From positions 39,520,383-39,584,382 of the forward strand of contig OZ024879.1 of NCBI GenBank assembly GCA_964017185.1: a DNA stretch of 64,000 nt. The letters are read 5' to 3'. Of the stretch, positions 1-64,000 are shown one piece after another. Each line of letters opens with the position of its first letter. The stretch's first letter is position 1. A model generated the notes under the pieces. That model ran no database searches, was not told the origin of the DNA, and saw only the letters and a program-made list of their open reading frames with translations. The DNA comes from Rugalucina vietnamica (Eukaryota > Mollusca > Bivalvia > Lucinida > Lucinidae). The translations under genes were made by a program, and so were the position numbers.

Positions 1-81
1 AAAACCTCGACAAACCCAAAGAAAAGTAACCCATGGTATAACGACGACTGTAAAGAAGCAATCAAACAACGGAAAGACACT

Positions 82-7251: not shown

Positions 7252-7510
7252 TAAAGACGCGGTCAAATGTGACAATAGTTGTGTACTGGTAATGGGACAC
7301 ACCGCGGTTTCGGCTACTTAAGCATCGTTAGTTACCCTTTAGGTTTGACAAAGCCAAAGGGAATTACTGTTATTTTGCAACTATTTTGAGTTTGCAGCTT
7401 TGGCCCAACACAGCTAAAACATTTGTCCCCATGTCTATTAGATTTTCACTAATATCATCACCGCCTCGATCTAATAGTTTTGCGAAGTTGATGGCTGCTT
7501 TGATGATATT

Positions 7511-7822
7511 GTTACGACCTAGCCTGGCAGCGGAGAACACTCTGTTTGGAATCCCACCGCTGCCACCACTTTTTATGTTACGACCTAGCCTGGCAGCGGA
7601 GAACTTCTCTGTTTGGAATCCCACCGCTGCCACCACTTTTTATGTTACGACCTAGCCTGGCAGCGGAGAACTTCTCTGTTTGGAATCCCACCGCTGCCAC
7701 CACTTTTTATGTTACGACCTAGCCTTGCAGCGGAGAACTTCTCTTATATTAGCATCCCACCGCTGCCACCACTTTTTATGTTACGACCTAGCCTGGCAGC
7801 AGTGAACTTCTCTTCTCTTCCG
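7511..7822. repeat. 66-69 bp minisatellite, each unit a potential hairpin
   Basis: Units at 7511-7576, 7577-7643, 7644-7710 and 7711-7779, plus a partial unit from 7780. Each begins GTTACGACCTAGCCTGGCAG. Every full unit carries the 9-mer TGGCAGCGG near its start and its exact reverse complement CCGCTGCCA about 25 bases later, so each unit can fold into a stem-loop. Units 2 and 3 are almost identical, which implies recent expansion. The open frames across it on both strands are repeat artefacts. Confidence 0.92.
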
Positions 7823-16750: not shown

Positions 16751-18025
16751 AAAAGGTACAAGTAGGCAAAGATCAGGAAAAGGCGCAACCAGAAAAAGAT
16801 TCCCACTCCAAAAACCAAGGTGGGAAAAAACAAACTAACAATCAGGTACTTATACCATGAAAACATATCGTAAGCCGAATGAGCAGCTATTTTCCCAATA
16901 GGTGGCCACTCAGTTACCTTAACTAAAAATATGAAACATACATAAGGCGCCAACAGCACAAAAAATTTAAACGCCAAGACATAAAACAAAAAGAACCACC
17001 ACAGAATTATCGCCTTGAAACGATCAGTAACACAAAGTTACTACATCATCCATAGTGCAGATTATATTATTTCTTTAGGTCCTTTGAGATCAGTTAGAAT
17101 ATTCAGAGTTCTAAAAATTGTACTTTTAGAGCCATCTTCTAAACATTGTTTCAGTTATTTGACCACGTTTAGGCATGCGTCTTTGATTTAGACTAACGTA
17201 TTTTTTTTAAATTGCAGTATATTTATCTGGCTATCAGCGCCGGTTTATAAAGGGTCACTGATGAGGGTTCAGTACCCGAAATTGCGCAATATGGCCCATA
17301 ATACCTCCCTTTGAACGTTTTCACTGCTTCCAAAGGTTCAAGCTTTTATATTTTATTAAATCGATTTTACATGGCCATAACCTCACCCTCAGCTTCTGCA
17401 GTGGTTCATAACATTTAGTTAGTTCTTCGGTCCTGGTAGTGAATCTCTAACTAGTCAATGAATCATCAAGAACAAACAAATAAATCAATCATGATAAACA
17501 TCCTGATGAATCAAACACCAGGACTCACAGATTCAGTAACCTGCTCGACGATTGAGATATCGGGGCGCCGAATAACTTACTCAATCCGGAGCAAAAGAAA
17601 AACATCAGTTGGACCCCGTTGGGCCAAGCAACAGACAAGAAGCTCCGGTCCCAACCAACTAAAATAAATAGCTTTAAGTCGGGGCCATCATAGAGTCTGA
17701 TGCCCGACCCACCGGCGTGCAATTAAAGAAGGCAGCATAGTTATCAACCATGATTGGGTTAAAAACTAAGCATGCAGACTGTCGCATAACATTCAAGTTA
17801 TAACCTATACGTCTGGAACGTGTTTTGATTTTTCAAAACTGAAAAGAAAAATCATTTCTTCCTATAAGTTTCCTAAATTTGTAAACCAAGTCACAATACG
17901 ATTCTGGTTCCGAAAGGCCCTCATTTAAAAGCGTCTTTAAACCAAGATTATATTTGGAAATCAATTCATAGTGCCTACGATAAAATTTAGAAAATGTTTT
18001 TTGAAGTTTATGATACCGATAGCCA
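16751..18025 (-). mobile_element. family P copy with RT 3' coding part
   Basis: Antisense copy. Its 3' terminus at 16751 (AAAAAGGTACAAGTAGGC) is followed by the shared 3' UTR. Minus-strand coding text at 17750-18010 reads GYRYHKLQKTFSKFYRRHYE, LGLKTLLNEGLSEPE and NVMRQSACLVFNPIMV, matching the copy at 52.2-53.6 kb. A segment of about 320 bp (17045-17365) separates AAAGTTACT from TTTTACATGGCC, which lie only 22 bp apart in other copies. It is either an insertion here or was lost from the others. The copy is truncated on the right at GATAGCC. Confidence 0.85.
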
Positions 18026-21100: not shown

Positions 21101-21129
21101 CATCAATATGTGCTGTAACATACATGGTA

Positions 21130-21300
21130 TACACTTTTGCTAAGAGACTTATTGTACATACCATACATAGTTGATGACATGCCTTGACAGTCTATATGAA
21201 ACCAGACATTGCATGTGTCGCAATAAAATCCCGCGGCCATCCCTTCCAACGCAAACATCACACAATCCACATGGAAAGTGAGGATTCTGGACCAGGATTT
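21130..21300 (-). pseudogene. PHD-finger-like fragment
   Basis: The minus strand reads FYCDTCNVWFHIDCQGMSST, preceded in another frame by HFPCGLCDVCVGRDGRGI. Together C-x2-C, then C-x2-C, W-F-H-x2-C follow the PHD zinc-finger order. A +/-1 frameshift near 21230 separates the halves. PHD fingers of this type occur at the N-terminus of some invertebrate CR1/L2-type retroelement ORFs and in host proteins. I cannot tell which this was. Confidence 0.55.
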
Positions 21301-21399
21301 GTTTCGGTGTCCCAGGAGTAACTTATCAACAAGGTAAAATATATAAGTGGATGAGCTTACCAGAGTGATGATCTTTAAACCTGACACGACCTTAAAATA

Positions 21400-21950
21400 G
21401 AAACAATGCAAAAGGGTGGTACATGAGCCATACGTTGTTGGTCAATCGCTGTTCCAAGGTGTATGCTAGAGTAAACTGGAAATAAGTTAGCTGGGAGTCT
21501 CCCAATGTCATTGTCCTGTTAATTCCAAAAATGTGTCAATCTGGTGGCTAACAGCAAGCCAGCAACAAAGATGAGCATGTCAAATAAAGGATGCTTCATC
21601 TTTCTGTTATTTGTGACCTCTTGTGATATAGGGGGGGGGAGGTTACGATATATGTTGCTGGGAAATTCTCCTGTCTAACCAAATCAACAATTGAGTACAT
21701 TCAATCCTAAGCTTATAGGTTACCTACATTGATTTTTAATTTGTTGTTTCGGGTTTAGTCCGCAGGAGCCGGAAGTAACAAAGAACCCGTGTTGATATAG
21801 ATTTATCTGGTGTTGATATAGATTTAACCGGTGTTGATATAAGGTCTGCAAGACTAATTTATATGGGCCAGTAGAAATCAAGCACTTCTAAATAAACAGC
21901 AAAAACTTTCATTTGGGCAGAGTTATTAGACTATTTATTATTTGTCCATT
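21400..21950. other. unassigned region
   Basis: A G-rich run (G9) lies near 21632, and the phrase GGTGTTGATATA is repeated three times at about 21790-21840. No gene seen. Confidence 0.4.
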
Positions 21951-22634: not shown

Positions 22635-23388
22635 CCTTATAACTTAAATGTTATGCGACAGTCTGCATGCTTAGTTTTTAACCCAATCATGGTTGATAAC
22701 TATGCTGCCTTCTTTAATTGCACGCCGGTGGGTCGGGCGTCAGACTCTATGATGGCCCCGACATAAAGCTATTCATTTTAGTTGGTTGGGGCCGGAGCTT
22801 CTTGTCTGTTGCTTGGCCCACCGGGGTCCAACTGGTGTTTTTCTTTTGCTCCGGAGTTAGTAGGTTATTCGGCGCCCAGGGATCTCCATCGTCGGGCAGC
22901 TTACTCAGTCTGTGAGTCCTGGTTTTTGATTCATCAGGATGTTTATCATGATTTATTTGTTTGTTCTTGATGATTCTTTGACTAGTTAGAGATTCACCAC
23001 GAGGACCGAATAACTAACTAAATGTTATGAACCACTGCAGAGGCTGAGGGTGAGGTTATGGCCATGTAAAACCGGTTTAAGCCCGCCAGTAACTTTGTGT
23101 TACTGATCGTTCCAAGTCGATACTTCTGTGGTGGTTCTTTTTGTTTTATGTCTTGGTGTATAAAAAATTTTTTGTGCTGTTGGCGCCTTATGTATGTTTT
23201 CATATTTTAGTTAAGTTAAGGTAACTGAGTGGCCACCTATTGGGAAAATAGCTGCTCATTCGGCTTACGATATGTTTCATGGTATAAGTACCTGATTGTT
23301 AGTTTGGTTTTTTCCCACCTCGGTTTTTGGAGTGGGAATCTTTTTCTGATTGCGCCTTTTCCTGATCTTTGCCTACTTGTACCTTTTT
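22635..23388 (+). mobile_element. family P copy, 3' part
   Basis: Sense copy covering the last coding text (MRQSACLVFNPIMVDNYAAF, then RASDSMMAPT) and the whole 3' UTR, ending GCCTACTTGTACCTTTTT at 23388. It is 5'-truncated near 22635 next to a repeated CCTTATAACTTATTG. The additional short frames inside it recur at 17.5 and 52.7 kb only because the sequence does. Confidence 0.88.
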
Positions 23389-24132: not shown

Positions 24133-25218
24133 ATGTCATCTAATAATGAAGAATATAATACATCATTTAATTTAGATGAACTGAATGATGCTATCAGTAA
24201 AGCCCATGATACAGCAACAGGTCCCGACGAAGTTCACTATCAAATGCTTAAACATCTTCCTCCTAGCTCACTTCTAGCTCTATTAGAAATATTCAATGAT
24301 ATGTGGGGAAACTGGGAAGTTTCCCGAAAGTTCGGAACTAGCCACTGTTATACCAATTCCTAAACCAGGAAAAGATCACACAGAACCTAACAATTACATA
24401 CCAATAGCACTTACAAGTTGTCTTTGTAAGACCTTAGAGAGAATGATTAATGTTAGACTCGTCTGGCACTTAGAAAGTAACAATCTTATTTCACCTGTTC
24501 AGTCGGGTTTCCGATCTGAACGAAGTACCAATGACAATTTGGTAAGACTGGAAACATTCATACGAGATGCATTTGTTGCTAAAGAGCATGTGGTGGCCGT
24601 GTTTTTCGACTTGGAAAAAGCTTATGAGACCACTTGTAGGAATGGCAATTTACGAGATCTCCATGATCTCGGAATTAGAGGCAGATTAGCTACATTTATA
24701 GAAAGCTTCCTTGCGGATCGATTGATCCAGGTTCGAGTTGGATCGACTTTATCCGAACAATTTGATCAGGCACAGGGTGTCCCACAAGGGGGCATTCTGT
24801 CTACAACATTATTCAATATCAAGATCAACAGCATAATGGACTGTTTGGATCCTAAACAGATGGTTCATTGTATGTAGATGACTTTTGCATGTGCTATAGA
24901 CCGAAAAGTATGAGAACTATTGAAATACACTTACAGCAGTGTATAAACAGAATAGAAAAGTGGGCTTCGCATAATGGTTTTAAATTTTCCAAGTCGAAAA
25001 CACAATGTGTACAATTCTGTCAGCTACGGAAAGTACATGATGATCCTGAACTTTACTTATATGGATCTCTTATTCCAGTGGTTGAAGATTTTAAATTTCT
25101 AGTAGTTCTATTTGATCGAAAGCTTTCCTTTATACCGCATATCAAGTATTTAAAGGCAAAATGTCTAAAAGCATTAAAACTTACTAAAGGTTTTATCGCA
25201 TACCGACTGGGGTGCTGA
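24133..25218 (+). pseudogene. reverse transcriptase of copy 2, broken
   Basis: Fragments in three frames cover TATGPDEVHYQMLKHLPP, IPKPGKDHTEPNNYIPIALT, motif A FFDLEKAYETTCR, motif B GVPQGGILS and motif C YVDDFCMCY. Motif A carries E for D in the second acidic-side position (AYET rather than AYDT), and the usual W of TTW is C, so this RT had already degenerated. Frameshifts are near 24310, 24855 and 25190. Confidence 0.82.
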
Positions 25219-25420
25219 CCGCACTGTCCTTCTGCAGCTATATCGGTCAATTATTCGTTCGAAGTTGGATTACGGATCCATTGTGTATGGATCAGCTAGA
25301 AAATCATACCTGAGTATGCTTGATACAGTTCACTACCAAGGACTAAGACTAGCTCTTGGGGCTTTTTGAACGTCACCTGTTGAGAGCCTCTATGTTGAGG
25401 CAGAAGAACCATCACTATAT

Positions 25421-26560
25421 TTGCGTCGAGAAAAACTTACTCTTCGGTATGCCATCAGACTTGCAGCAAACCCCTCTAATCCTGCACATAAGGTAACTTT
25501 CCCACCATATATTTCTGACGAGCTCTTACAGCTTTACAAAAGTAAACCAAATGCTATCAGGTCTTTTGGTTTACGAGTAGCACCACTTTTAACATCAGCA
25601 AAAATCAAACAAGATAAAATAGAAAAACATCCCGTTTCTGAAATTCCACCATGGTGCATTAGAAAGCCAACAGTAAATTTGACACTTCATACAGGGAAAA
25701 AATCAGAATCAAATCCACACTTTCTCAAGGAAAATTTCCACCAACTACAGTCACAATTTTCTGATTATCATTTTATTTATACTGATGGGTCAAAGGAAGA
25801 TAACAAAGTAGGTTGTGCTACTTATTCCAAAGATGCTTGCAAAACTTTACGTCTACCTGATGGTTCTTCAATTTTTACAGCAGAAGCTAAGGCTATTGAC
25901 TTAGCTTTAGACTGCATTAATGATTGTAACTCGTACAACAAATTCGTTATTTTCTCTGATTCTCTATCAGTCCTTCAGGCCCTAGACCATACAATGTCCA
26001 AAAACCAACAAATACAAAATATATTGCTGAAACATCATAGCATTTCTGAATTTAAAACTATTGTGTATTGCTGGGTTCCCAGTCATGTAGGAATATATGG
26101 TAACGAGCAAGTCGACAAGAAAGCAAAAGAATCACTGAGCCTAGAACAAACAGATTTTAAAATTCCTTTTATCAATTTTAAACCTTTTATCAACGAGTAT
26201 GTCTTTAATGAATGGCAATCAATTTGGAGCAGAGCAGATGACAATAAATTGAAAGAAATTGAACCTCATGTAAAACGACCAAGATTAATTCATAAACTTT
26301 CGAGACGGGAAGAGATTGTTCTTTCTTGTCTTCGAATTGGTCATACACGATTGACATATTCATATTTACTTAAACGAGAAGATAAACCTCAATGTATTGG
26401 ATGTGACACACAATTAACTGTCAAGCACTTTCTGCTTGAATGCATTGATTTTATAGATGTACGTCGTTCCTGCTTTCAAAGTAACAGCTTGAAAGATTTG
26501 TTCAAAAATGTATCTGTTGAACGCATTTTGTCATTTTTAAAACGAACTAACCCTTTTTAA
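25421..26560 (+). CDS. RT C-terminus plus RNase H and CCHC domain, intact frame, copy 2
   Basis: A 379-codon uninterrupted frame. The first ~90 residues are the RT tail (RREKLTLRYAIRLAANPSNP; SDELLQLYKSKPNAIRSFGL). RNase H follows, with IYTDGSKEDNKVGCATYS, FTAEAKAIDLALD, FVIFSDSLSVLQAL and WVPSHVGIYGNEQVDKKAKE, then a tail with CIGCDTQLTVKHFLLEC. The four acidic residues expected of RNase H (Asp, Glu, Asp, Asp) are all present. The upstream part of the ORF is broken, so this is a surviving open stretch, not an expressed gene. The ATG at 25421 is internal to the original protein. Confidence 0.85.
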   Translation: MRREKLTLRYAIRLAANPSNPAHKVTFPPYISDELLQLYKSKPNAIRSFGLRVAPLLTSAKIKQDKIEKHPVSEIPPWCIRKPTVNLTLHTGKKSESNPHFLKENFHQLQSQFSDYHFIYTDGSKEDNKVGCATYSKDACKTLRLPDGSSIFTAEAKAIDLALDCINDCNSYNKFVIFSDSLSVLQALDHTMSKNQQIQNILLKHHSISEFKTIVYCWVPSHVGIYGNEQVDKKAKESLSLEQTDFKIPFINFKPFINEYVFNEWQSIWSRADDNKLKEIEPHVKRPRLIHKLSRREEIVLSCLRIGHTRLTYSYLLKREDKPQCIGCDTQLTVKHFLLECIDFIDVRRSCFQSNSLKDLFKNVSVERILSFLKRTNPF

Positions 26561-47992: not shown

Positions 47993-48533
47993 AGGTACAA
48001 GTAGGCAAAGATCAGGAAAAGGCGTAATCAGAAAGAGATTCCCACTCCAAAAACCGAGGTGAGAAAAAACCAAACTAACAATAAGGCACTTATACCATGA
48101 AACATATCGTAAGCCGAATGAGCAGCTATTTTCCCAACAGGTGGCCACTCAGTTACCTTAACTTAATTAAAAATATGAAAACACACATAAGGCACCAACA
48201 GCACAACAAATTTTAAACACCAAGACATAAAACAAAAAAAACACCACAGAAGTATCGCATTGGAACGATCAGTAACAAAGTTACTGGCGGGCTTAAACCG
48301 GTTTTACAGGATCCTAACCTCACCCTCAGCTTCTGCAGTGGTTCATAACATTTAGTTAATTATTCGGTCCTCGTGGTGAATCTCTAACTAGTCAATGAAT
48401 CATCAAGAACAAACAAATAAATCATGATAAACATCCTGATGAATCAAAAACAAGGACTCACAGATTGAGTAAGCTGCCCGACGATGTAGATCCCTGGGCG
48501 CCGAATAACCTACTAACTCCTACTAACTTAACT
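47993..48533 (-). mobile_element. family P copy in the RT linker of copy 3
   Basis: Antisense P from AGGTACAAGTAGGCAAAG to GCGCCGAATAACCTACTAAC, followed by a small repeat (TACTAACTCCTACTAACTTAAC) before the I/Nimb-like text AAGACTAAGTTAAAC resumes. In copies 1 and 4 the flanks are adjacent (CAAGAAAAGACTAAGTTAAAC). Confidence 0.87.
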
Positions 48534-50009
48534 AAGACTAAGTTAAACTTTAAGGCCTCAAATAATGAAGAATATAACACTCCTTTTAATTTAGATGAAC
48601 TTAAAGACGCCATCAGTAAAGCCCATGATACAGCAACAGGTCCCGACGAAGTTCACTATCAAATGCTAAAACATCTTCCACCAAAATCACTTCAAGCTCT
48701 ATTAGATATCTTTAATGATATGTGGGAAACTGTAAAGTTTCCCGAAAGCTGGGAACTAGCCACTATAATACCAATTCCTAAACCTGGAAAAGACCATGCA
48801 GAACCTAACAGCTATAGACCGATAGAACTTACAAGTTGTCTTTGCAAAACCTTGGAGAGAATGATAAATGTAAGACTTGTTTGGTACTTAGAAAGTAATA
48901 ACCTAATATCTCCTGTTCAGTCGGGCTTCCGTTCTGAACGAAGTACCAACGATAATTTAGTAAGACTGGAAACTTTTATTCGAGATGCCTTTGTTGCAAA
49001 GGAGCATGTTGTTGCTGTGTTTTTTGACTTGGAAAAAGCTTATGATACCACCTGGAGACATGGTATTATGCGAGATTTACATGATCTTGGAATACGAGGC
49101 AGATTAGCTACATTTATTGAAAATTTCCTTGCGGATCGCTGGATCCAGGTTCGTGTTGGATCGACTTTATCCGAAAAGTTTGATCAAGCACAGGGTGTCA
49201 CACAAGGGAGCATCTTGTCTACAACATTGTTCAATATTAAGATAAACAGCATAATGAACTGCCTGGATCCTAAAACAGATGGATCCCTATATGTAGATGA
49301 TTTCTGTATGTGTTACAAGTCAAAAAGTATGAGAACTATCGAAAGACACTTACAGCAGTGCATTAACAGAATAGAAAACTGGGCCTCACATAATGGTTTC
49401 AAATTTTCCAAGTCGAAAACACAATGTGTGCATTTCTGTCAATTACCGAAAGTACACAACGATCCTGAATTTTATTTATATGGGTCTCTTATTCCAGTAG
49501 TTGAAGATTTTAAATTTCTTGGAGTTCTTTTTGATCGTAAGCTTTCTTTCATACCGCATATCAAGTACTTAAAGGCCAAGTGCCTAAAAGCATTAAACTT
49601 ACTGAAAGTATTATCACACACTGACCGGGGTGCTGATCGCACTGTCCTTCTCCAGCTGTACCGTTCCCTCATTCGTTCAAAATTAGATTATGGATCCATC
49701 GTATATGGATCGGCAAGACCATCATATATCAGTTCTCTTGACACAGTACACCATCAAGGCCTAAGATTAGCTCTGGGTGCTTTTCGAACATCACCTGTAC
49801 AAAGCCTATATGTTGAAGCTGAAGAGCCATCTCTATATTTACGACGAGAGAAACTTGCCCTACAGTACGCCATTAGAATTGCGGCTAATCCATCAAATCC
49901 AGTTCATAAGGTGTCTTTTCCGCCATATATTTCTGAAGAAGCGTACAGCTTTACGAAAGTAAACCAAAGGTTATCCGGTCCTTTGGTTTACGAGTTGCAC
50001 CACTTTTAG
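48534..50009 (+). pseudogene. reverse transcriptase of ORF2, copy 3, single open frame
   Basis: The longest RT frame in the window, open from the P insertion to a stop at 50009. Motifs: TATGPDEVHYQMLKHLP, IIPIPKPGKDHAEPNSYRPI, GFRSERSTNDNLVRLETF, motif A FFDLEKAYDTTW, motif B GVTQGS (Thr for the usual Pro), motif C YVDDF, then LGVLFDRKLSFIPHI and a thumb-like region to AANPSNPVHKVSFPPYIS. It ends out of frame (EEAYSFTKVNQRLSGPLVYE) because of the 1-nt deletion shared with copies 1 and 4. Without that deletion it would run on into RNase H. Confidence 0.88.
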
Positions 50010-52195: not shown

Positions 52196-53721
52196 TCACT
52201 TTTTGGGTGTTATGACACCCTAATGTTGGATAGAAAAAGGTACAAGTAGGCAAAGGTCAGGAAAAGACGCAATCAGAAAGAGATTCCCACTCCAAAAACC
52301 GAGGTGGGAAAAAACAAACTAACAATCAGGCACTTATACCATGAAACATATCGTAAGCCGAATGAGCAGCTATTTTCCCAATAGGTGGCCACTCAGTTAC
52401 CTTAACTTAATTAAAGATATGAAAACACACATAAGGCGCCAACAGCACAAAAAAATTCAAACACCAAGACATAAGACAAAAAGAACCACCACAGAAGTAT
52501 CGCCTTGGAACGATCAGTAACACAAAGTTACTGGCGGGCTTAAACCGGTTTTACAGGATCCTAACCTCACCCTCAGCTTCTGCAGTGGTTCATAACATTT
52601 AGTAAGTTCTTCGGTCCTCGTGGTGAATCTCTAACTAGTCAATGAATCATCAAGAACAAACAAATAAATCATGATAAACATCCTGATGAATCAAAAACAA
52701 GGACTCACAGATTGAGTAAGCTGCCCGACGATGGAGATCCCTGGGCGCCGAATAACCTACTAACTCGGGAGCAAAAGAAAAACACCAGTTGGACCCCGGT
52801 GGGCCAAGCAACAGACAAGAAGCTCCGGCCCCAACCAACTAAAATGAATAGCTTTAAGTCGGGGCCATCATAGAGTCTGACGCCCGACCCACCGGCGTGC
52901 AATTAAAGAAGGCAGCATAGTTATCAACCATGATTGGGTTAAAAACTAAGCATGCAGACTGTCGCATAACATTCAAGTTATAACCTATACGTCTGTAACG
53001 TGTTATGATTTTTCTGAACTGAAAAGAAAAATCATTAATTCCTATAAGTTTCTTAAATTTGTAAACTAAGTCACCATAAAATTCAGGTTCCGAAAGGCCC
53101 TCACTTAAAAGCGTCTGTAATCCAACATTATATTTGAAAATCAATTCATAGTGTCTACGATAAAATTTAGAAAAGGTTTTTCGAAGTTTATGATAGCGAT
53201 AGCCCTGTTGGAGCCGTTAAACATTTATTTCGAGCGTTGAAGTCTATAACATGATTGCAGACTCTAGCAAACCTAATAAGTTGCGAAATGTAAACACCAT
53301 AAGAAGCACGACGAGGAACGTCACCATCCAAAAAAGGAAAATTTACTATATCAAAATCAAAGTCATCGCGCTTATCATAAATTTTAGAAGAAACAAATCC
53401 ATTTGCAACAGAAAGATGTAGATCTAAAAAGGGGGCTTCGGTATCTGAGAAATTGGCTTTGTTCAACTGAAGTTCAGGTGGATAAATTTGATTGACCATA
53501 CCTTCAAAATAAGGGTTGTCAATGTTCAAAAGGTCATCGAGGTACCTAGATGTGGAATTAAAAGCCTCGATAACATCAGCTTGATCATCATGGTTAAGAG
53601 AATCCATGAAATCTCTTTCGTAGCAGTATAAAAATAAATCCCATGAAGTCCCATGAAATGGAGGCAGCTCTCCAACATGTCCATTATTGTTGACTTGGGT
53701 GCTAAGTTTCAATCCAAACAA
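52196..53721 (+). repeat. SINE tail split by a family P insertion
   Basis: 52196-52235 (CACTTTTTGGGTGTTATGAC...ATGTTGGATAGAAA) and 53641-53721 (GTCCCATGAAATGGAGGC...CATTATTGTTGACTTGGG) are adjacent parts of one SINE tail. The P copy at 52236-53640 lies between them, at the point where intact SINEs read GGGTAAAAGTCCCATAAAATGG. Confidence 0.8.
52236..53640 (-). pseudogene. family P retroelement, longest copy, with reverse transcriptase C-terminal half
   Basis: Minus-strand coding text starts LFLYCYERDFMDSL, then the catalytic RYLDDLLNIDNPYFEGMV (YxDD), then IYPPELQLNKA, APFLDLHLSVANGF, SKIYDKRDDFDFDIVNFPFL, YGVYISQLIRFARVC and GYRYHKLRKTFSKFYRRHYE, ending VMRQSACLVFNPIMV. One frameshift lies near 53205. 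A YxDD motif followed by a FLDL strand and a Tyr/Lys-rich segment is most like Penelope-type RTs. Clade is uncertain, since the N-terminal RT motifs and any GIY-YIG nuclease are absent. A ~0.6-kb 3' UTR ends at GTACCTTTTT. The copy is 5'-truncated at 53640. Confidence 0.78.
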
Positions 53722-57699: not shown

Positions 57700-59187
57700 G
57701 AAAGAACAAGAAAAGACTAAATTAAACTTTAAGTCCTCAAATAATGAAGAATATAATACTCCTTTTAATTTGGATGAACTAAAAGACGCCATCAGTAAAG
57801 CCCATGATACAGCAACAGGTCCCGACGAAGTTCACTATCAAATGTTAAAACATCTTCCACCAAAATCACTTCATGCTCTCTTAGATATATTTAATGATAT
57901 GTGGGAAACTGGAAAGTTTCCCGAAAGATGGGAACTAGCCACTATAATACCAATTCCTAAACCTGGAAAAGACCATGCAGAACCTGACAGCTATAGACCG
58001 ATAGCACTTACAAGTTGTCTTTGCAAAACTTTAGAGAGAATGATAAATGTAAGACTTGTTTGGTACTTAGAAAGTAATAACCTAATATCTCCTGTTCAGT
58101 CGGGCTTCCGTTCTGAACGAAGTACCAACGACAATTTAATAAGACGGGAAACATTTATTCGTGACGCCTTTGTTGCAAAGGAGCATGTTGTTGCTGTGTT
58201 TTTCGACTTGGAAAAAGCTTATGATACCACCTGGAGACATGGTATTATGCGAGATCTACATGTCTCGGAATACGTGGCAGATTAGCTACATTTATCTAAA
58301 ATTTCCTTGCGGATCGTTGGATCCAGGTTCGTGTTGGATCGACTTTATCCGAAAAGTTCGACCAAGCACAGGGTGTCCCACAAGGGAGCATCTTGTCTAC
58401 AACATTGTTCAATATTAAGATAAATAGCATAATGGATTGCTTAGATCCTAAAACAGATGGATCATTATATGTAGATGATTCCTGTATGTGTTACAGGTCA
58501 AAACGTATGAGAACTATCGAAAGGCACTTACAGCAGTGCATTAACAGAATAGAAAACTGGGCCTCACATAATGGTTTCAAATTTTCCAAGTCGAAAATTC
58601 AATGTGTACATTTCTGTCAACTACGGAAAGTACACAACGATCCCGAACTTTATTTATATGGTTCTCTTATTCCAGTAGCTGAAGATTTTAAATTTCTTGG
58701 AGTTCTTTTTGATCGTAAACTTTCTTTCATTCCACATATAAAGTACTTAAAAGCCAAATGCCTGAAAGCATTGAACTTACTGAAAGTATTATCACACACA
58801 GACTGGGGTGCTGATCGCACTGTCCTTCTCCAGCTATACCGTTCCCTCATTCGTTCAAAATTAGATTATGGATCCATTGTATATGGATCGGCAAGACCAT
58901 CATATATCAGTTCTCTTGACACAGTGCATCATCAAGGCCTAAGATTAGCTCTGGGTGCTTTTCGAACATCACCTGTACAAAGCCTCTATGTTGAGGCTGA
59001 AGAGCCATCTCTATATTTACGACGAGAGAAACTTGCCCTACAGTACGCCATTAGAATTGCTGCTAATCCATCAAATCCAGTTCATAAGGTGTCTTTTCCG
59101 CCATATATTTCTGAAGAAGCGTACAGCTTTACGAAAGTAAACCAAAGGCTATCCGGTCCTTTGGTTTACGGGTTGCACCACTTTTAG
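57700..59187 (+). pseudogene. reverse transcriptase of copy 4, two frames
   Basis: 57770-58285 covers TATGPDEVHYQMLKHLP to motif A FFDLEKAYDTTW. Near 58262 a loss within ATGATCTCGG (here ATGTCTCGG) shifts the frame. 58393-59187 then carries the end of motif B, YVDDSCMCY (Ser for Phe after the DD pair) and the thumb region. The ending EEAYSFTKVNQRLSGPLVYG is the out-of-frame tail produced by the shared 1-nt deletion. A stop also lies near 58297 (TTATCTAAAATT). Confidence 0.87.
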
Positions 59188-60160
59188 AATCAGCAAACAT
59201 CCAAAAAGATAAAATAGAAGAACTTTTTGTTTCCGAAATACCATCATGGTGCATTAGAAAACCAGAAGTTAATTTGACTCTACATACAGGGAAAAAATCC
59301 GACTCAAATCCACACCTTCTGAAAGAAAGTTTTCATCAACTACAATCTCAATTTATTGACTATCAATGTATTTATACTGATGGTTCAAAAGAAGAAAACA
59401 AAGTTGGTTGTGCTACTTTTACAAACGGCAATTGCAAAACATTACGTTTACCTGATGGCTCTTCAATTTTCACAGCGGAAGCTAAAGCTATAGACTTAGC
59501 TTTAGACTTCATAAATGAAAGTAACTTAAAGGACAAATTTATTATTTTTCTGACTCTATGTCAGTTCTACAGGCCTTAAACCATACATCATCCAAAAACC
59601 CTCAAATACAAAAACTATTAATAAAACATCATACCATCTCGGAATTGAAAACAATTATCTATTGCTGGGTTCCCAGTCATATAGGTATATATGGAAATGA
59701 GAAAGTTGATAAGAACGCTAAAGAATCGTTAAATCTAGAAGAAACCGTTTTTAAAATTCCTTATATCAATTTTAAACCTTTTATTAACGAGTACATCTCT
59801 GAAAAATGGCAAACAATCTGGAACGGTGCGAAGTTTGATAAATTGAGGGAAGTCGAACCGATCGTTAAACGACCAAAAGCAATTCATAAACTTTCGAGAC
59901 GAGAAGAAATCGTTCTTGCTCGTCTCCGAATTGGTCATACAAGAATAACACATTCCCACTTATTAAAGCGAGAAGATGAACCTAAATGCATTGGCTGTGA
60001 TACACCATTCACAGTGTAACACTTTCTTTTAGAATGCACTGACTTTGCAGCAGAGCGAATTTCTTGTTTTCAAGCTAATAACTTGAAAGAATTGTTCAAA
60101 GATGTACCCGCTGGAAAGATTTTATCATTTCTTAGACAAGTAAATCTGTTTTATAAAATA
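59188..60160 (+). pseudogene. RNase H and CCHC tail of copy 4
   Basis: IYTDGSKEENKVGCATF and FTAEAKAIDLALDF. A 1-nt loss in the T run (ATTATTTTTCTGACTC near 59545) then splits the domain; MSVLQALNHTSSKNPQIQKL and WVPSHIGIYGNEKVDKNAKE continue in the next frame. TAA at about 60019 (FTV-stop) interrupts CIGCDTPFTVKHFLLEC just before its His. Confidence 0.87.
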
Positions 60161-60721: not shown

Positions 60722-60875
60722 AATAAGGCGGTTCAAACGAGTACCCACAATCTATGTTTTGGAGCAAAGATAAGAAAAAAGGTATACCCCTGAATACCCA
60801 TGTTTTGCTATTTAAAAGTGGGGTCTAAGGGGTATACATTATACTGATATGTTTTCATGATGTCTTAGCTGTTCA
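60722..60875 (+). repeat. fold-back family F, half copy
   Basis: Starts AGGCGGTTCAAACGAGTACC, then CACAATCTATGTTTTGGAGC, GGTATACCCCTGAATACCC, TTTGCTATTTAAAAGTGGGG and GGGGTATACATTATACTGA. It lacks the left arm of the palindrome that the copies at 61.6 and 63.3 kb possess. Confidence 0.78.
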
Positions 60876-61519: not shown

Positions 61520-62290
61520 TCATTATGAAAACTTGCCGATGCAACAATATAGAGATATTTTTCAGCTGTGAAAATTTAAAACTTAGTTTTGCTCAAAACA
61601 TAGGTTGTAGGTACACGTTAGAACCGCCTCGCCGAGGCGGTTCTAACGGCGGTTCTAACGAGTACCCACAATCTATGTTTTGGATCAAAAATTAGACAAA
61701 TAGGTATACCCCTGCATACCCCAGCTTAGCGTCAATGAAAAGTTACCAGTAAATCAGGTTCAGTTAACATACGAAAATATTTGATTCATTCTGGAGAGAA
61801 AACTACCGGTGCTTCAGCATTCATTTTCATGGCATAGAATGCCATCCATCATTGCTATTGAAAACGGTGCTCATCACAGCCGAAAGGATTATAGGCAGTC
61901 CTGGACAAATGTCAGATGCCTCCATTGAATGTACGGGGAAATGCAGAATTTGGGTACTACATTAAATCCGGCAGTCGTTGGAAAATTTTAAACCAATTTG
62001 GTGGCATTTTAACTGCGGTTGTTAGATGCATGAGAAGACATGACGATGTATGAAAATAAGGCTTTCAAGTTCTCAAAAAGTTGCAAATTGCACATGTTGC
62101 ACGTGCACCATATTTTCAGGGTTAGTGGAACTGTTGAATGTCTCTAAATCAATATGAATGAAGCTACATAACGAATTTTTAAAAAAAATCTATATTTTTC
62201 AAAATATCGAAGTTTTAGTTGTGGTAACTTTTCACTGACGCTGAGTATATATAAAAGTTGTGTTTAAGGGGTTATACATTTTACGGACAT
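61520..62290 (+). repeat. fold-back family F, copy split by ~500 bp
   Basis: Left text ATGAAAACTTGCCGATGCAAC at about 61527. Palindrome centre GTTAGAACCGCCTCGCCGAG at 61617, followed by a duplicated arm (GCGGTTCTAACGGCGGTTCTAAC). GGTATACCCCTGCATACCCC ends near 61721. The remaining part of the family (TATATATAAAAGTTGTGTTT; GGGGTTATACATTTTACGGACATG) appears at 62244-62292, so 61722-62243 (GCTTAGCGTCAATGAAAAG to TTTCACTGACGCTGAG) is an insertion. That segment itself has inverted ends (TCAGCGTCAGTGAAAAGT-type). Confidence 0.72.
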
Positions 62291-62352
62291 GTTATCTGAT
62301 GTAACTACATACACAAACTAAACGTGTTCACCGCTGTATTTACCTCTCAGCA

Positions 62353-63594
62353 TCACCAGAAGAAGAAACGACAGCATATATTCCTTACTCCGAAAACCCC
62401 ACACCTTCCAAAATAGTATTCACCCCACATACACGCACGGAAACCACAGTGGCAGTGTCGGTGCCCACGCATTGGCCATGGCCCGAAAACTTGCGGTCCG
62501 GCTGAAAAAAAAAAGTTCGATATAAATGATACCTGGTTGCGGTCAGACACGTGCCAGTTTTTTAAAAGGTCTGTACTCATTCACGGGGGTAAATCAAATG
62601 GTGCTACTTGTACATGTGCCGTATATCTCCAGTGCCGTATTTCTCCAGTGCCGTATATCTCCATTGTTATTTAAGACCACATAAAACATTTTTGCATCCA
62701 TTAAAAGCTTAGATTGACCGACGACGTGATTACTAGTAATCCATAGAAGCCTTCGTGGTGCAGTGGTTAAGCCACGCCTTGTAAACCAGGGGTCGCAGGT
62801 TCGATCTCGGGGACTCTACAGTTCTTCGAATAAGACTGTAAACCGAGGTCCCACGGCAACTTTCCAGAAGACACGGATGGCAATAACATACGGTGACGAG
62901 GCTGGAGACTATGCTGTGCTTTAAGTCCAAGAGACCTAGTCTTATGGTGCGCTGGGTTTCCATTTTAAAGCTCTAAGTCAGTCCAGGAAAGTCAAACTTT
63001 CATACATATTAGCCTTAGTTCTTTACTTGTATTTATATATTATAAAGCACATGCATGTAACGAAATCTTAATGTTGGGTAGAAATACGTCGCATAAAATG
63101 GAGACAACGTCCTGGCCTAGCCATAGCTGTAAACGCCTTACTTTGGATTACGAAAACTTGCCCGTGCAATTAACAGAGATTTTTCATCTTTAAAAATTGA
63201 AAATTTTCCGCTGAAAATTTTTGATATTTTTCTTATTTTTGCTCCAAACATAGATTGTGGGTACACGTTAGAACCGCCTCGGCGAGGCGGTTCTAACGAG
63301 TACCCACAATCTATGTTTTGGAGCAAAAATAAGAAAAATAGGTATACCCCTGCATACCCCAGTTTTGCTATATAAAAGTGGGGTTCAAGGGGGTATACAT
63401 TACACGGACATGTTTTCCTGATGGAACATCTCTTGGCCAAAATGTGTCATCTATTACACCAAGTATTACTATTTTAGCCATCCCAACCCATCCGTCTACT
63501 CGTATATCTGTTTTTAACACATACCTTCAGCCATCTGAATCAGTGTTAGTCCAAGGACCAAAATAACGAAACAAGCTGCTACCGCTTTCATCAT
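62353..63594 (-). CDS. secreted beta-defensin-like cysteine-rich peptide (two exons)
   Basis: Exon 1 is 63525-63594, exon 2 is 62353-62501, the intron 62502-63524. The donor is GCTGAAG|GTATGT; the acceptor is TTTTTTTTTTCAG|CC. A phase 1 donor meets a two-base start, so the frame joins exactly. Product: 72 residues. Residues 1-24 are a signal peptide (MMKAVAACFVILVLG...) ending Ala-Glu-Ala, an ideal signal-peptidase site. The 48-residue remainder has cysteines at precursor positions 40, 42, 47, 57, 66 and 67 (C-x1-C-x4-C-x9-C-x8-CC), Gly-Arg-Cys before the fourth, six Arg, one acidic residue and many aromatics, ending RFFFW. Beta-defensins show C-x4-C-x9-C-x6-CC with G-x-C, so the likely role is a secreted antimicrobial peptide. 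Big defensins carry a hydrophobic N-terminal domain, absent here. C1-C2 spacing is unusually short. Expression is unproven. Confidence 0.68.
62748..63132 (+). mobile_element. SINE with tRNA-Thr(TGT)-like head, full length
   Basis: Head 62748-62820: GCCTTCGTGGTGCAGTGGTT (A box), CTTGTAAACCAGGGG (anticodon loop TGT flanked by Thr-type stem remnants) and GGTTCGATCTCGGGG (B box). The body leads to blocks shared with all other SINEs here: CAGTCCAGGAAAGTCAAAC, CATACATATTAGCC, AAAATGGAGACAACGTCC and AGCCATAGCTG. This shows the common SINE family has, or can carry, a tRNA-Thr head. It lies in the intron, antisense to the gene. Confidence 0.8.
63135..63430 (+). repeat. fold-back family F, best copy, with ~95-bp near-perfect palindrome
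   Basis: Left arm from about 63236 (TATTTTTGCTCCAAACATAG...GTTAGAACCGCCTCG). Centre near 63280 (CCTCGGCGAGG). Right arm to about 63331 (CGGTTCTAACGAGTACCCAC...TTTTGGAGCAAAAATA). The arms differ by one mismatch and one single-base gap by eye. It continues through GGTATACCCCTGCATACCCC, a TATAAAAG box (GCTATATAAAAGTGGGG) and GGGGGTATACATTACACGGA. It lies in the intron of the defensin-like gene. Confidence 0.88.
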
Positions 63595-63837
63595 TCTGTT
63601 TGTCCTATCTCCCACTCCGCACAATGTAAGAATGGCAGAAAAAAGCTGCACCTCGATACTTAAACATCGAAGTAGGACACAAAACAGAATTATGGAGGGC
63701 CGCGACGTGAGAAAACCTGGCTTCGAGATTTCCGACCAGGTCGCACCAGGTCTGACACAAACCGGACTGTACAGTCTCGGAGAAAGGCTAGAAGCTTGGA
63801 ATTTCGTATTTGAGAAGGGAAAGGATTGTACTATGTA

Positions 63838-63902
63838 GCGAAAACAAAGGCGCTGATCAGCTGTGCAGTCACTGCACAGCTGATCTGCGCCTTCGTTTTC
63901 GC
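63838..63902. repeat. 64-bp hairpin-forming palindrome of a dispersed repeat
   Basis: GCGAAAACAAAGGCGCTGAT...GTGCAGT, one base, then ACTGCACAGCTGATC...GTTTTCGC. The arms are 32 bp with two mismatches. The minus-strand translation CENEGADQLCSDCTADQRLC is a phrase I have seen in spurious invertebrate protein predictions, so this is a widespread repeat. It lies about 245 bp upstream of the start codon of the defensin-like gene. Confidence 0.8.
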
Positions 63903-64000
63903 ACAGGCAAATTTCCGAGGTTCTCTCGTTGCGGCTCAAATCATCATGGTGATGAATGATTACAAATGGGCTTTGTGTGAAATGTTTTTGCATTAATCAG

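What the first reader, a model, noticed from the sequence alone, without database searches (positions are those of the whole stretch)
62353..63594. Two-exon gene for a secreted, beta-defensin-like peptide
Seen: exon 1 gives a hydrophobic signal sequence ending Ala-Glu-Ala exactly at the splice junction. The splice phases match. Exon 2 gives a 48-residue, net +5 (His not counted), six-cysteine peptide ending in a stop. Known: beta-defensins have C-x4-C-x9-C-x6-CC between Cys2 and Cys6, with Gly-x-Cys at Cys4; here it is C-x4-C-x9-C-x8-CC with Gly-Arg-Cys. Molluscan big defensins have a long hydrophobic N-domain that is missing here. Inference: a short, vertebrate-style beta-defensin architecture in an invertebrate, or a new six-cysteine family. 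The C-x1-C start and the aromatic RFFFW end are unusual. Each separate piece is weak; the agreement of signal cleavage site, phase and cysteine pattern is not expected by chance.
Basis: partly seen in the sequence, partly recalled or inferred. Interest (0 to 1): 0.92.

Follow-up and report, generated by a model that had tools for sequence, protein, structure and literature searches.

The report
Alpha-defensin-like peptide gene, likely mollusc
This stretch of what is probably mollusc DNA looks like a small two-exon gene for a secreted, positively charged peptide whose six cysteines are spaced like those of the alpha-defensins of mammals, a kind of immune peptide thought to be restricted to mammals, but nothing yet shows that the gene is expressed.

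Summary
The two-exon gene is in the sequence, on the minus strand: exon 1 63594-63525, intron 63524-62502 (GT-AG, phase 1), exon 2 62501-62353. The spliced product has 72 residues: a 24-residue signal-like sequence ending Ala-Glu-Ala and a 48-residue, +5, six-cysteine peptide. Chance is a poor explanation: the only signal-like first exon with a G|GTnnG donor in 2 x 64 kb lies 1 kb upstream of the only alpha-defensin-spaced frame (0 of 300 shuffles). C-x1-C-x4-C-x9-C-x8-CC fails the published beta motif at two of its four gaps and meets the alpha motif at all. Eight of the nine residues invariant in mammalian alpha-defensins are in register; the salt-bridge Arg is not. Homology support is weak: Pfam mammalian defensin E 0.06 and beta defensin E 0.04, trimmed cores only, below cut-off; PDB sequence hits are all alpha-defensins, best E 0.15. 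Short, N-domain-less defensins with a phase-1 intron are already known in bivalves (PMC7203481); the alpha-type framework is the new point. Best reading: a secreted trans-defensin, probably antimicrobial, convergent on the alpha spacing. No expression, orthologue or disulfide data were available.

The parts
63525..63594 (-). Exon 1: start codon and signal-like sequence MMKAVAACFVILVLGLTLIQMAE + first base of a split Ala codon
   Evidence: Translation; only signal-like first exon with a G|GTnnG donor in 2 x 64 kb; no blastn copy in the window. A at -3 of the ATG (read).
62502..63524 (-). Phase-1 intron, 1023 nt, GT-AG
   Evidence: Donor AAG|GTATGT rank 19/3626, acceptor T10CAG rank 85/3487. Holds a palindromic MITE-like element and other dispersed repeats.
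62353..62501 (-). Exon 2: mature 48-residue peptide and TGA stop
   Evidence: Translation; no blastn copy in the window.
62371..62454 (-). Six-cysteine core, C-x1-C-x4-C-x9-C-x8-CC, with Glu at Cys3+4 and Gly at Cys4-2
   Evidence: Alpha-defensin motif of PMC515299 met; 0 of 300 shuffles; this 28-aa piece hits only Pfam Defensin_1, E 0.053, 14.5 bits, below the cut-off of 21.4.
62356..62370 (-). Aromatic C-terminal tail RFFFW after the CC pair
   Evidence: Sequence.
63225..63340 (.). Palindromic MITE-like repeat inside the intron (not part of the peptide)
   Evidence: 55-nt inverted arms 1 nt apart, 82% complementary without gaps; related stretches at 61582-61730 and 60726-60862.

Best explanation
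A host gene for a secreted trans-defensin with alpha-defensin-type cysteine spacing. Exon 1 supplies a signal peptide that is removed after Ala-Glu-Ala, at the residue where the intron falls, so that exon 2 is the mature peptide; no acidic propiece is present. The peptide should oxidise to three disulfides and form a three-stranded antiparallel sheet. With +5 charge from arginines and one quarter aromatic residues, it would act as an antimicrobial host-defence peptide, binding anionic microbial surfaces, with the aromatic surface and the RFFFW tail standing in for the hydrophobic N-domain that lets big defensins work in salt. It probably arose in a mollusc lineage from, or beside, short big-defensin-type genes, and reached the alpha spacing independently of mammals. 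Shown: the exon pair, phase, splice-site quality, spacing, charge. Inferred: expression, cleavage, fold, pairing, activity, host, descent.
For: Gene model and rarity. Published alpha motif met at every gap; eight of the nine residues called invariant in mammalian alpha-defensins are in register (six Cys, Glu, Gly; PMC9872612 passages). PDB sequence search: the only 4 hits up to E 10 are alpha-defensins (E 0.15-0.72); the 33-aa core hits the same 4 (E 0.18-3.7); 3 Cys-fixed shuffles gave no defensin (0, 0 and 1 hit, an antibody chain). Pfam on the 33-aa core: only Defensin_beta (14.2 bits) and Defensin_1 (14.3 bits); of 10 Cys-fixed shuffles 2 hit Defensin_1, at 9.6 and 10.7 bits, 1 hit an unrelated family (10.8 bits), none Defensin_beta. 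AlphaFold2 of the 33-aa core: strands 2-4, 15-21, 24-28 (plus 7-9), mean pLDDT 66.8; mouse Crp14, renumbered from Cys1, has strands 0-4, 13-20, 23-29. A phase-1 intron at the start of the Cys-rich region is the conserved position in big and beta-defensins (PMC7203481 section 9).
Against: No RNA, no relative and no paralogue: none in the window, viral contigs gave one locus on an 8-residue match, prokaryote genomes and phages none; the animal's genome is not held. Every Pfam and PDB score is below significance, and Pfam hits appear only for pieces of 28, 33 and 34 aa, not for 32, 37, 41, 49 or 72 aa. The salt-bridge Arg (Cys2+1) is Gly; an Arg sits at Cys2+3. The 48-aa model is poor (pLDDT 47.7) and four of five core models are below 50. 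Foldseek against PDB found nothing for either model. No AATAAA close to the stop, no TATA upstream.
Confidence: 0.55

Rival explanations
1. Ordinary short big-defensin paralogue (beta-type pairing 1-5, 2-4, 3-6), of the kind known in Ruditapes, in which Cys1 has slipped next to Cys2; the alpha spacing is superficial.
For: Same architecture and a phase-1 intron as in Ruditapes ncBigDef; Pfam Defensin_beta scores as well as Defensin_1 on the 33-aa core (14.2 vs 14.3 bits); C-x-C starts are also, from recall, present in some sea anemone beta-defensin-fold toxins, a group that pairs 1-5, 2-4, 3-6 (pairing: passages of PMC6627431).
Against: Gaps 1 and 4 lie outside the beta motif; Defensin_beta aligns only from its position 11, leaving out Cys1, while Defensin_1 aligns over its whole length; on the 28-aa core only Defensin_1 is hit. 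Glu at Cys3+4 is conserved in alpha-defensins; that beta-defensins lack it is recalled and was not tested.
Confidence: 0.25
2. A real secreted cysteine-rich peptide of a new family with another fold and another job, such as a toxin-like, shell-matrix or signalling peptide.
For: No family match above threshold; molluscs carry many lineage-specific cysteine-rich peptides (recalled); Foldseek finds nothing in PDB.
Against: The weak PDB and Pfam hits of the core point to vertebrate trans-defensins and to nothing else.
Confidence: 0.12
3. Not a working gene: a chance pairing of a hydrophobic open frame with a cysteine-rich open frame, or a decayed copy.
For: No RNA, no relative; no standard polyA signal close by; the region is rich in dispersed repeats; loose six-Cys frames are common.
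Against: Joint expectation about 0.001 per window even for the loose class; good splice sites; no stop or frameshift in the model; exons outside the repeats found.
Confidence: 0.08

Closest known systems
Mammalian alpha-defensins (Pfam PF00323 Defensin_1; HNPs, HD5/HD6, cryptdins, RK-1)
   Same: C-x1-C-x3-4-C-x9-C-x6-10-CC spacing met; Glu at Cys3+4 and Gly at Cys4-2 in register; cationic.
   Different: No acidic propiece; Arg at Cys2+1 replaced by Gly; 15-residue N-terminal arm and RFFFW tail; probably mollusc DNA; Pfam score below the curated cut-off.
Non-canonical (N-domain-less) big defensins of Ruditapes philippinarum and Dreissena rostriformis
   Same: Short precursor without the N-domain; Ruditapes gene with a phase-1 intron before the Cys-rich region (PMC7203481, section 9).
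   Different: They are described as beta-defensin-like; the Dreissena ones lost the intron; their letters were not at hand to align.
Vertebrate beta-defensins (PF00711) and crustacean panusins
   Same: Six Cys ending CC, Gly-x-Cys at Cys4 (beta-defensins, recalled), phase-1 intron (beta-defensins), no N-domain.
   Different: Cys1-Cys2 gap 4-8 and Cys4-Cys5 gap 4-7 in beta-defensins; here 1 and 8.
Cnidarian trans-defensins (sea anemone beta-defensin-fold peptides)
   Same: Six Cys, four single and a final pair (PMC6627431 passages); C-x-C start in some (recalled).
   Different: Cys2-Cys3 gap is much longer in those recalled; venom neurotoxins; the paper on the group (Mitchell 2019) was seen only as an entry in a reference list.

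Membership tests
alpha-defensin | Cysteine motif C-X1-C-X3-4-C-X9-C-X6-10-C-C | tested here: met
   C-x1-C-x4-C-x9-C-x8-CC; motif from PMC515299 passages, pattern test.
alpha-defensin | Invariant Gly at Cys4-2 (Gly17 of HNP1) | tested here: met
   Gly31 of the mature peptide; PMC9872612 passages. Beta-defensins share it (recalled).
alpha-defensin | Salt bridge Arg (Cys2+1) - Glu (Cys3+4) | tested here: not met
   Glu27 is in register, but Cys2+1 is Gly19; the nearest Arg is at Cys2+3 (sequence; rule).
alpha-defensin | Score above the curated Pfam cut-off of Defensin_1 | tested here: not met
   14.2-14.5 bits against 21.4, and only for trimmed cores of 28, 33 and 34 aa.
alpha-defensin | Acidic propiece between signal and mature peptide | tested here: not met
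   Signal-like sequence ends at the splice junction; no acidic stretch. That alpha-defensin precursors have an acidic pro-region is stated in a PMC6780910 passage.
alpha-defensin | Disulfide pairing 1-6, 2-4, 3-5 | not testable with these tools
   Needs mapping on the peptide; models are of low confidence.
beta-defensin | Cysteine motif C-X4-8-C-X3-5-C-X9-13-C-X4-7-C-C | tested here: not met
   Gaps 1 and 4 are 1 and 8; no match anywhere in the window (motif).
beta-defensin | Phase-1 intron at the 5' end of the Cys-rich region | tested here: met
   Codon split 1|2; PMC7203481 section 9.
beta-defensin | Score above the curated Pfam cut-off of Defensin_beta | tested here: not met
   14.2 bits (33 aa) and 12.4 bits (34 aa) against 21; not listed for other pieces.
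big defensin | Hydrophobic N-terminal domain before the Cys-rich domain | tested here: not met
   Absent in the precursor; some bivalve paralogues also lack it.
big defensin | Big-defensin cysteine spacing (C-x6-C-x3-C-x13,14-C-x4-CC, recalled) | tested here: not met
   No match in the window.
invertebrate CS-alpha-beta (cis) defensin | C-X5-16-C-X3-C-X9-10-C-X4-7-C-X1-C | tested here: not met
   The peptide ends CC, not C-x-C (sequence; motif).

The most novel reading that the evidence does not exclude
An alpha-defensin framework outside mammals: a mollusc peptide that independently reached, or has kept from an old trans-defensin stock, the alpha spacing, the 1-6, 2-4, 3-5 pairing and the Glu and Gly positions, on a gene of big/beta-defensin type without a propiece. 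That would make the alpha type a recurrent outcome of trans-defensin evolution instead of a mammalian invention.
Probability: 0.3. Interest if true: 0.72.

Novelty: new variant of a known kind. Interest (0 to 1): 0.5.

Why it matters
Alpha-defensins are described as found only in some mammals (PMC7203481 and PMC515299 passages), and vertebrate defensins as descended from one beta-defensin-like gene (PMC515299 abstract passage). A mollusc gene with the alpha spacing on a big/beta-defensin-type exon plan would be an independent test of how a beta-type cysteine array turns into an alpha-type one. It also bears on how a short defensin can work in sea salt without the big-defensin N-domain, which confers activity at high salt on the oyster peptide (PMC6805989, abstract).

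Tried and rejected
Own genome search: none held. Relatives of the mature peptide: in viral contigs 6 stretches matched a pattern and 1 passed, locus L001, on an 8-residue match, rejected as chance; in bacterial/archaeal genomes 45 stretches matched a pattern, none was confirmed; phages: no match. Plasmids, E. coli genomes and metagenome contigs were not searched. Paralogues in the window: only chance-level tblastn hits. NCBIfam: two hits of the 72-aa precursor far below cut-off, none for the core. Structure: 48-aa and 33-aa single-sequence models, low to middling confidence; Foldseek against PDB empty for both, BFVD two hits with E above 2. So short a peptide may be missed by Foldseek (my inference), and I count this as uninformative. 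The BLOSUM comparison with three alpha-defensin pieces (6, 0 and 39 of 2000 Cys-fixed shuffles reach the score for RK-1, HD6, HNP4) is biased, since those three were the best database hits; I give it little weight. Papers: the listings of 10 searches (titles and starts of abstracts of the rows shown) showed me no alpha-type defensin gene in a mollusc; the library is open-access only and the lists are capped, so this is no proof. Alpha-type pairing outside mammals is reported for an ascidian peptide of pattern CC-C-C-CC and, as cited there, for aurelin and damicornin (PMC13208793 passages). Organism: inferred only. Of 9 stretches in genome contigs that matched a pattern of the window's LINE, 3 were confirmed: 2 contigs of the assembly of a Solemya (bivalve) gill symbiont (55 and 58% identity) and 1 of a Sulfurovum MAG (63%), which I read as host DNA; viral contigs had none.

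Full report
What is there. On the minus strand, 63594-63525 encodes MMKAVAACFVILVLGLTLIQMAE plus one base; 63524-62502 is a 1023-nt GT-AG interval; 62501-62353 completes an Ala codon and encodes GPQVFGPWPMRGHRHCHCGFRACMWGEYYFGRCGVFGVRNICCRFFFW and TGA. The joined frame has 72 residues. The donor AAG|GTATGT ranks 19 of 3626 GTs on the strand, the acceptor T10-CAG 85 of 3487 AGs. Neither exon has a blastn copy elsewhere in the window, while the intron and both flanks hold dispersed repeats, among them a palindromic MITE-like element at 63225-63340.

Is it more than chance? A frame with six cysteines ending in CC is not rare by itself: two in the window and 0.59 per dinucleotide shuffle. The alpha-defensin spacing is rare: one in the window, 0 of 300 shuffles. 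Hydrophobic first exons that end at a G|GTnnG donor: one in the window, this one (nine loci if any GT is allowed), and 0.24 per shuffled window (100 shuffles). The product of rates, for a pair in phase within 3 kb, is about 0.001 per window for the loose class and about 6e-6 for the alpha class when 0 of 300 is taken as 1/300. These are estimates with thresholds that I set after seeing the gene. Against the model stand the lack of an AATAAA in the first 834 nt after the stop (a weaker variant, AATATA, at 157), the lack of a TATA box in the 406 nt upstream that the window holds, and an open frame upstream of the ATG.

What kind of peptide. PMC515299 (passages) gives the motifs: alpha C-X1-C-X3-4-C-X9-C-X6-10-C-C, beta C-X4-8-C-X3-5-C-X9-13-C-X4-7-C-C, invertebrate C-X5-16-C-X3-C-X9-10-C-X4-7-C-X1-C. 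This peptide is C-x1-C-x4-C-x9-C-x8-CC: inside every alpha range, outside the beta ranges at gaps 1 and 4. PMC9872612 (passages) names nine invariant residues of mammalian alpha-defensins. Six cysteines, Glu at Cys3+4 and Gly at Cys4-2 are in register here; the Arg of the salt bridge, at Cys2+1, is Gly, with an Arg two residues on. So 8 of 9.

Sequence searches agree in direction but not in strength. Against all PDB sequences, 4 of 4 hits up to E 10 are alpha-defensins, best E 0.15; the 33-residue core gives the same 4, best E 0.18; three Cys-fixed shuffles give no defensin, one of them an antibody chain at E 1.4. Against Pfam, the 33- and 34-residue cores hit only Defensin_beta and Defensin_1, at 12.4 to 14.3 bits against cut-offs of 21 and 21.4; the 28-residue core hits only Defensin_1, at 14.5 bits; the pieces of 32, 37, 41, 49 and 72 residues hit nothing. 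Of ten Cys-fixed shuffles two hit Defensin_1, at 9.6 and 10.7 bits, and one an unrelated family at 10.8 bits: spacing alone can give much of the score, the other residues add a few bits.

Structure. Without an alignment, AlphaFold2 gives the 48-residue peptide pLDDT 47.7 and the 33-residue core 66.8, with strands at 2-4, 7-9, 15-21 and 24-28; the other four core models are below 50. The first and the last two strands lie close to the three of Crp14 (renumbered). Foldseek found no PDB match for either model, and the second aligner was not available. I take the sheet as plausible, not shown.

Host. The genome is not held. The window holds several LINE copies; the one at 48465-50009 has an RVT_1 domain and matches, at 55-63% protein identity, two contigs of a Solemya elarraichensis gill-symbiont assembly and one of a Sulfurovum MAG, which look like host DNA in symbiont assemblies. 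A bivalve or other mollusc is likely, not proven.

How it probably works. Inferred: signal peptidase cuts after Ala-Glu-Ala, which is also the splice point, so exon 2 is the mature peptide. Six arginines and one glutamate give +5; 12 of 48 residues are aromatic. Such a peptide would bind anionic microbial surfaces and insert or assemble there. In the oyster big defensin the N-domain gives activity at high salt and drives nanonets (PMC6805989, abstract); a short peptide in a marine animal must do without it, and the aromatic surface with the RFFFW tail is my candidate for the substitute. HD6, the best match by local score though in a biased comparison, is an alpha-defensin for which nanonets were identified (PMC7203481 passage).

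What is known and what is new. Short, N-domain-less defensin genes are known in bivalves, in Ruditapes with a phase-1 intron (PMC7203481, section 9), so the architecture is not new. The review states that alpha-defensins have been identified only in a few mammals. Alpha-type pairing occurs in an ascidian peptide of another cysteine pattern and, as cited there, in aurelin and damicornin (PMC13208793 passages). I saw no alpha-spaced defensin gene of a mollusc in the listings of ten paper searches (named under Tried and rejected). I file the peptide as a trans-defensin-like variant and not as a member of the alpha-defensins, since the salt bridge, the propiece and the Pfam cut-off were tested and not met.

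Noticed in passing
52812-52879 (-), 22741-22808 (+), 17632-17699 (-): Three Rfam SECIS_1 matches above the gathering score lie in one dispersed repeat (aligned stretches 52512-53179, 22637-23108, 17356-17999 and, without the hairpin, 48267-48520; 88-98% identical): a repeat that spreads a SECIS-like hairpin, either a false positive or a source of new SECIS elements.
   Followed up: partly
82-2817, 24296-26560, 48465-50009, 57770-60019: Four stretches of one LINE family (all four align to locus L002), mostly in broken frames, the longest of 514 aa at 48465-50009; RVT_1 and RNase_H matches in the frames tested; relatives in contigs of symbiont assemblies.
   Followed up: partly
63838-63902 and 63514-63993 (-): A palindrome (32-nt arms, 94% complementary) within an open frame that runs into the signal-sequence exon from upstream; no Pfam match. 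It looks like a dispersed repeat; from recall similar peptides recur in mollusc protein sets.
   Followed up: partly
62248-62305, 63369-63427, 60809-60863: A short repeat of about 58 nt (82-85% identical) lies in the intron and just downstream of exon 2, next to MITE-like palindromes.
   Followed up: partly
7510-7813: Tandem array of 4.5 copies of a 67-nt unit, 94% matches.
   Followed up: no
21103-21411 (-): Frame with a weak PHD-finger match, 23.6 bits, just below the Pfam cut-off of 24.
   Followed up: no
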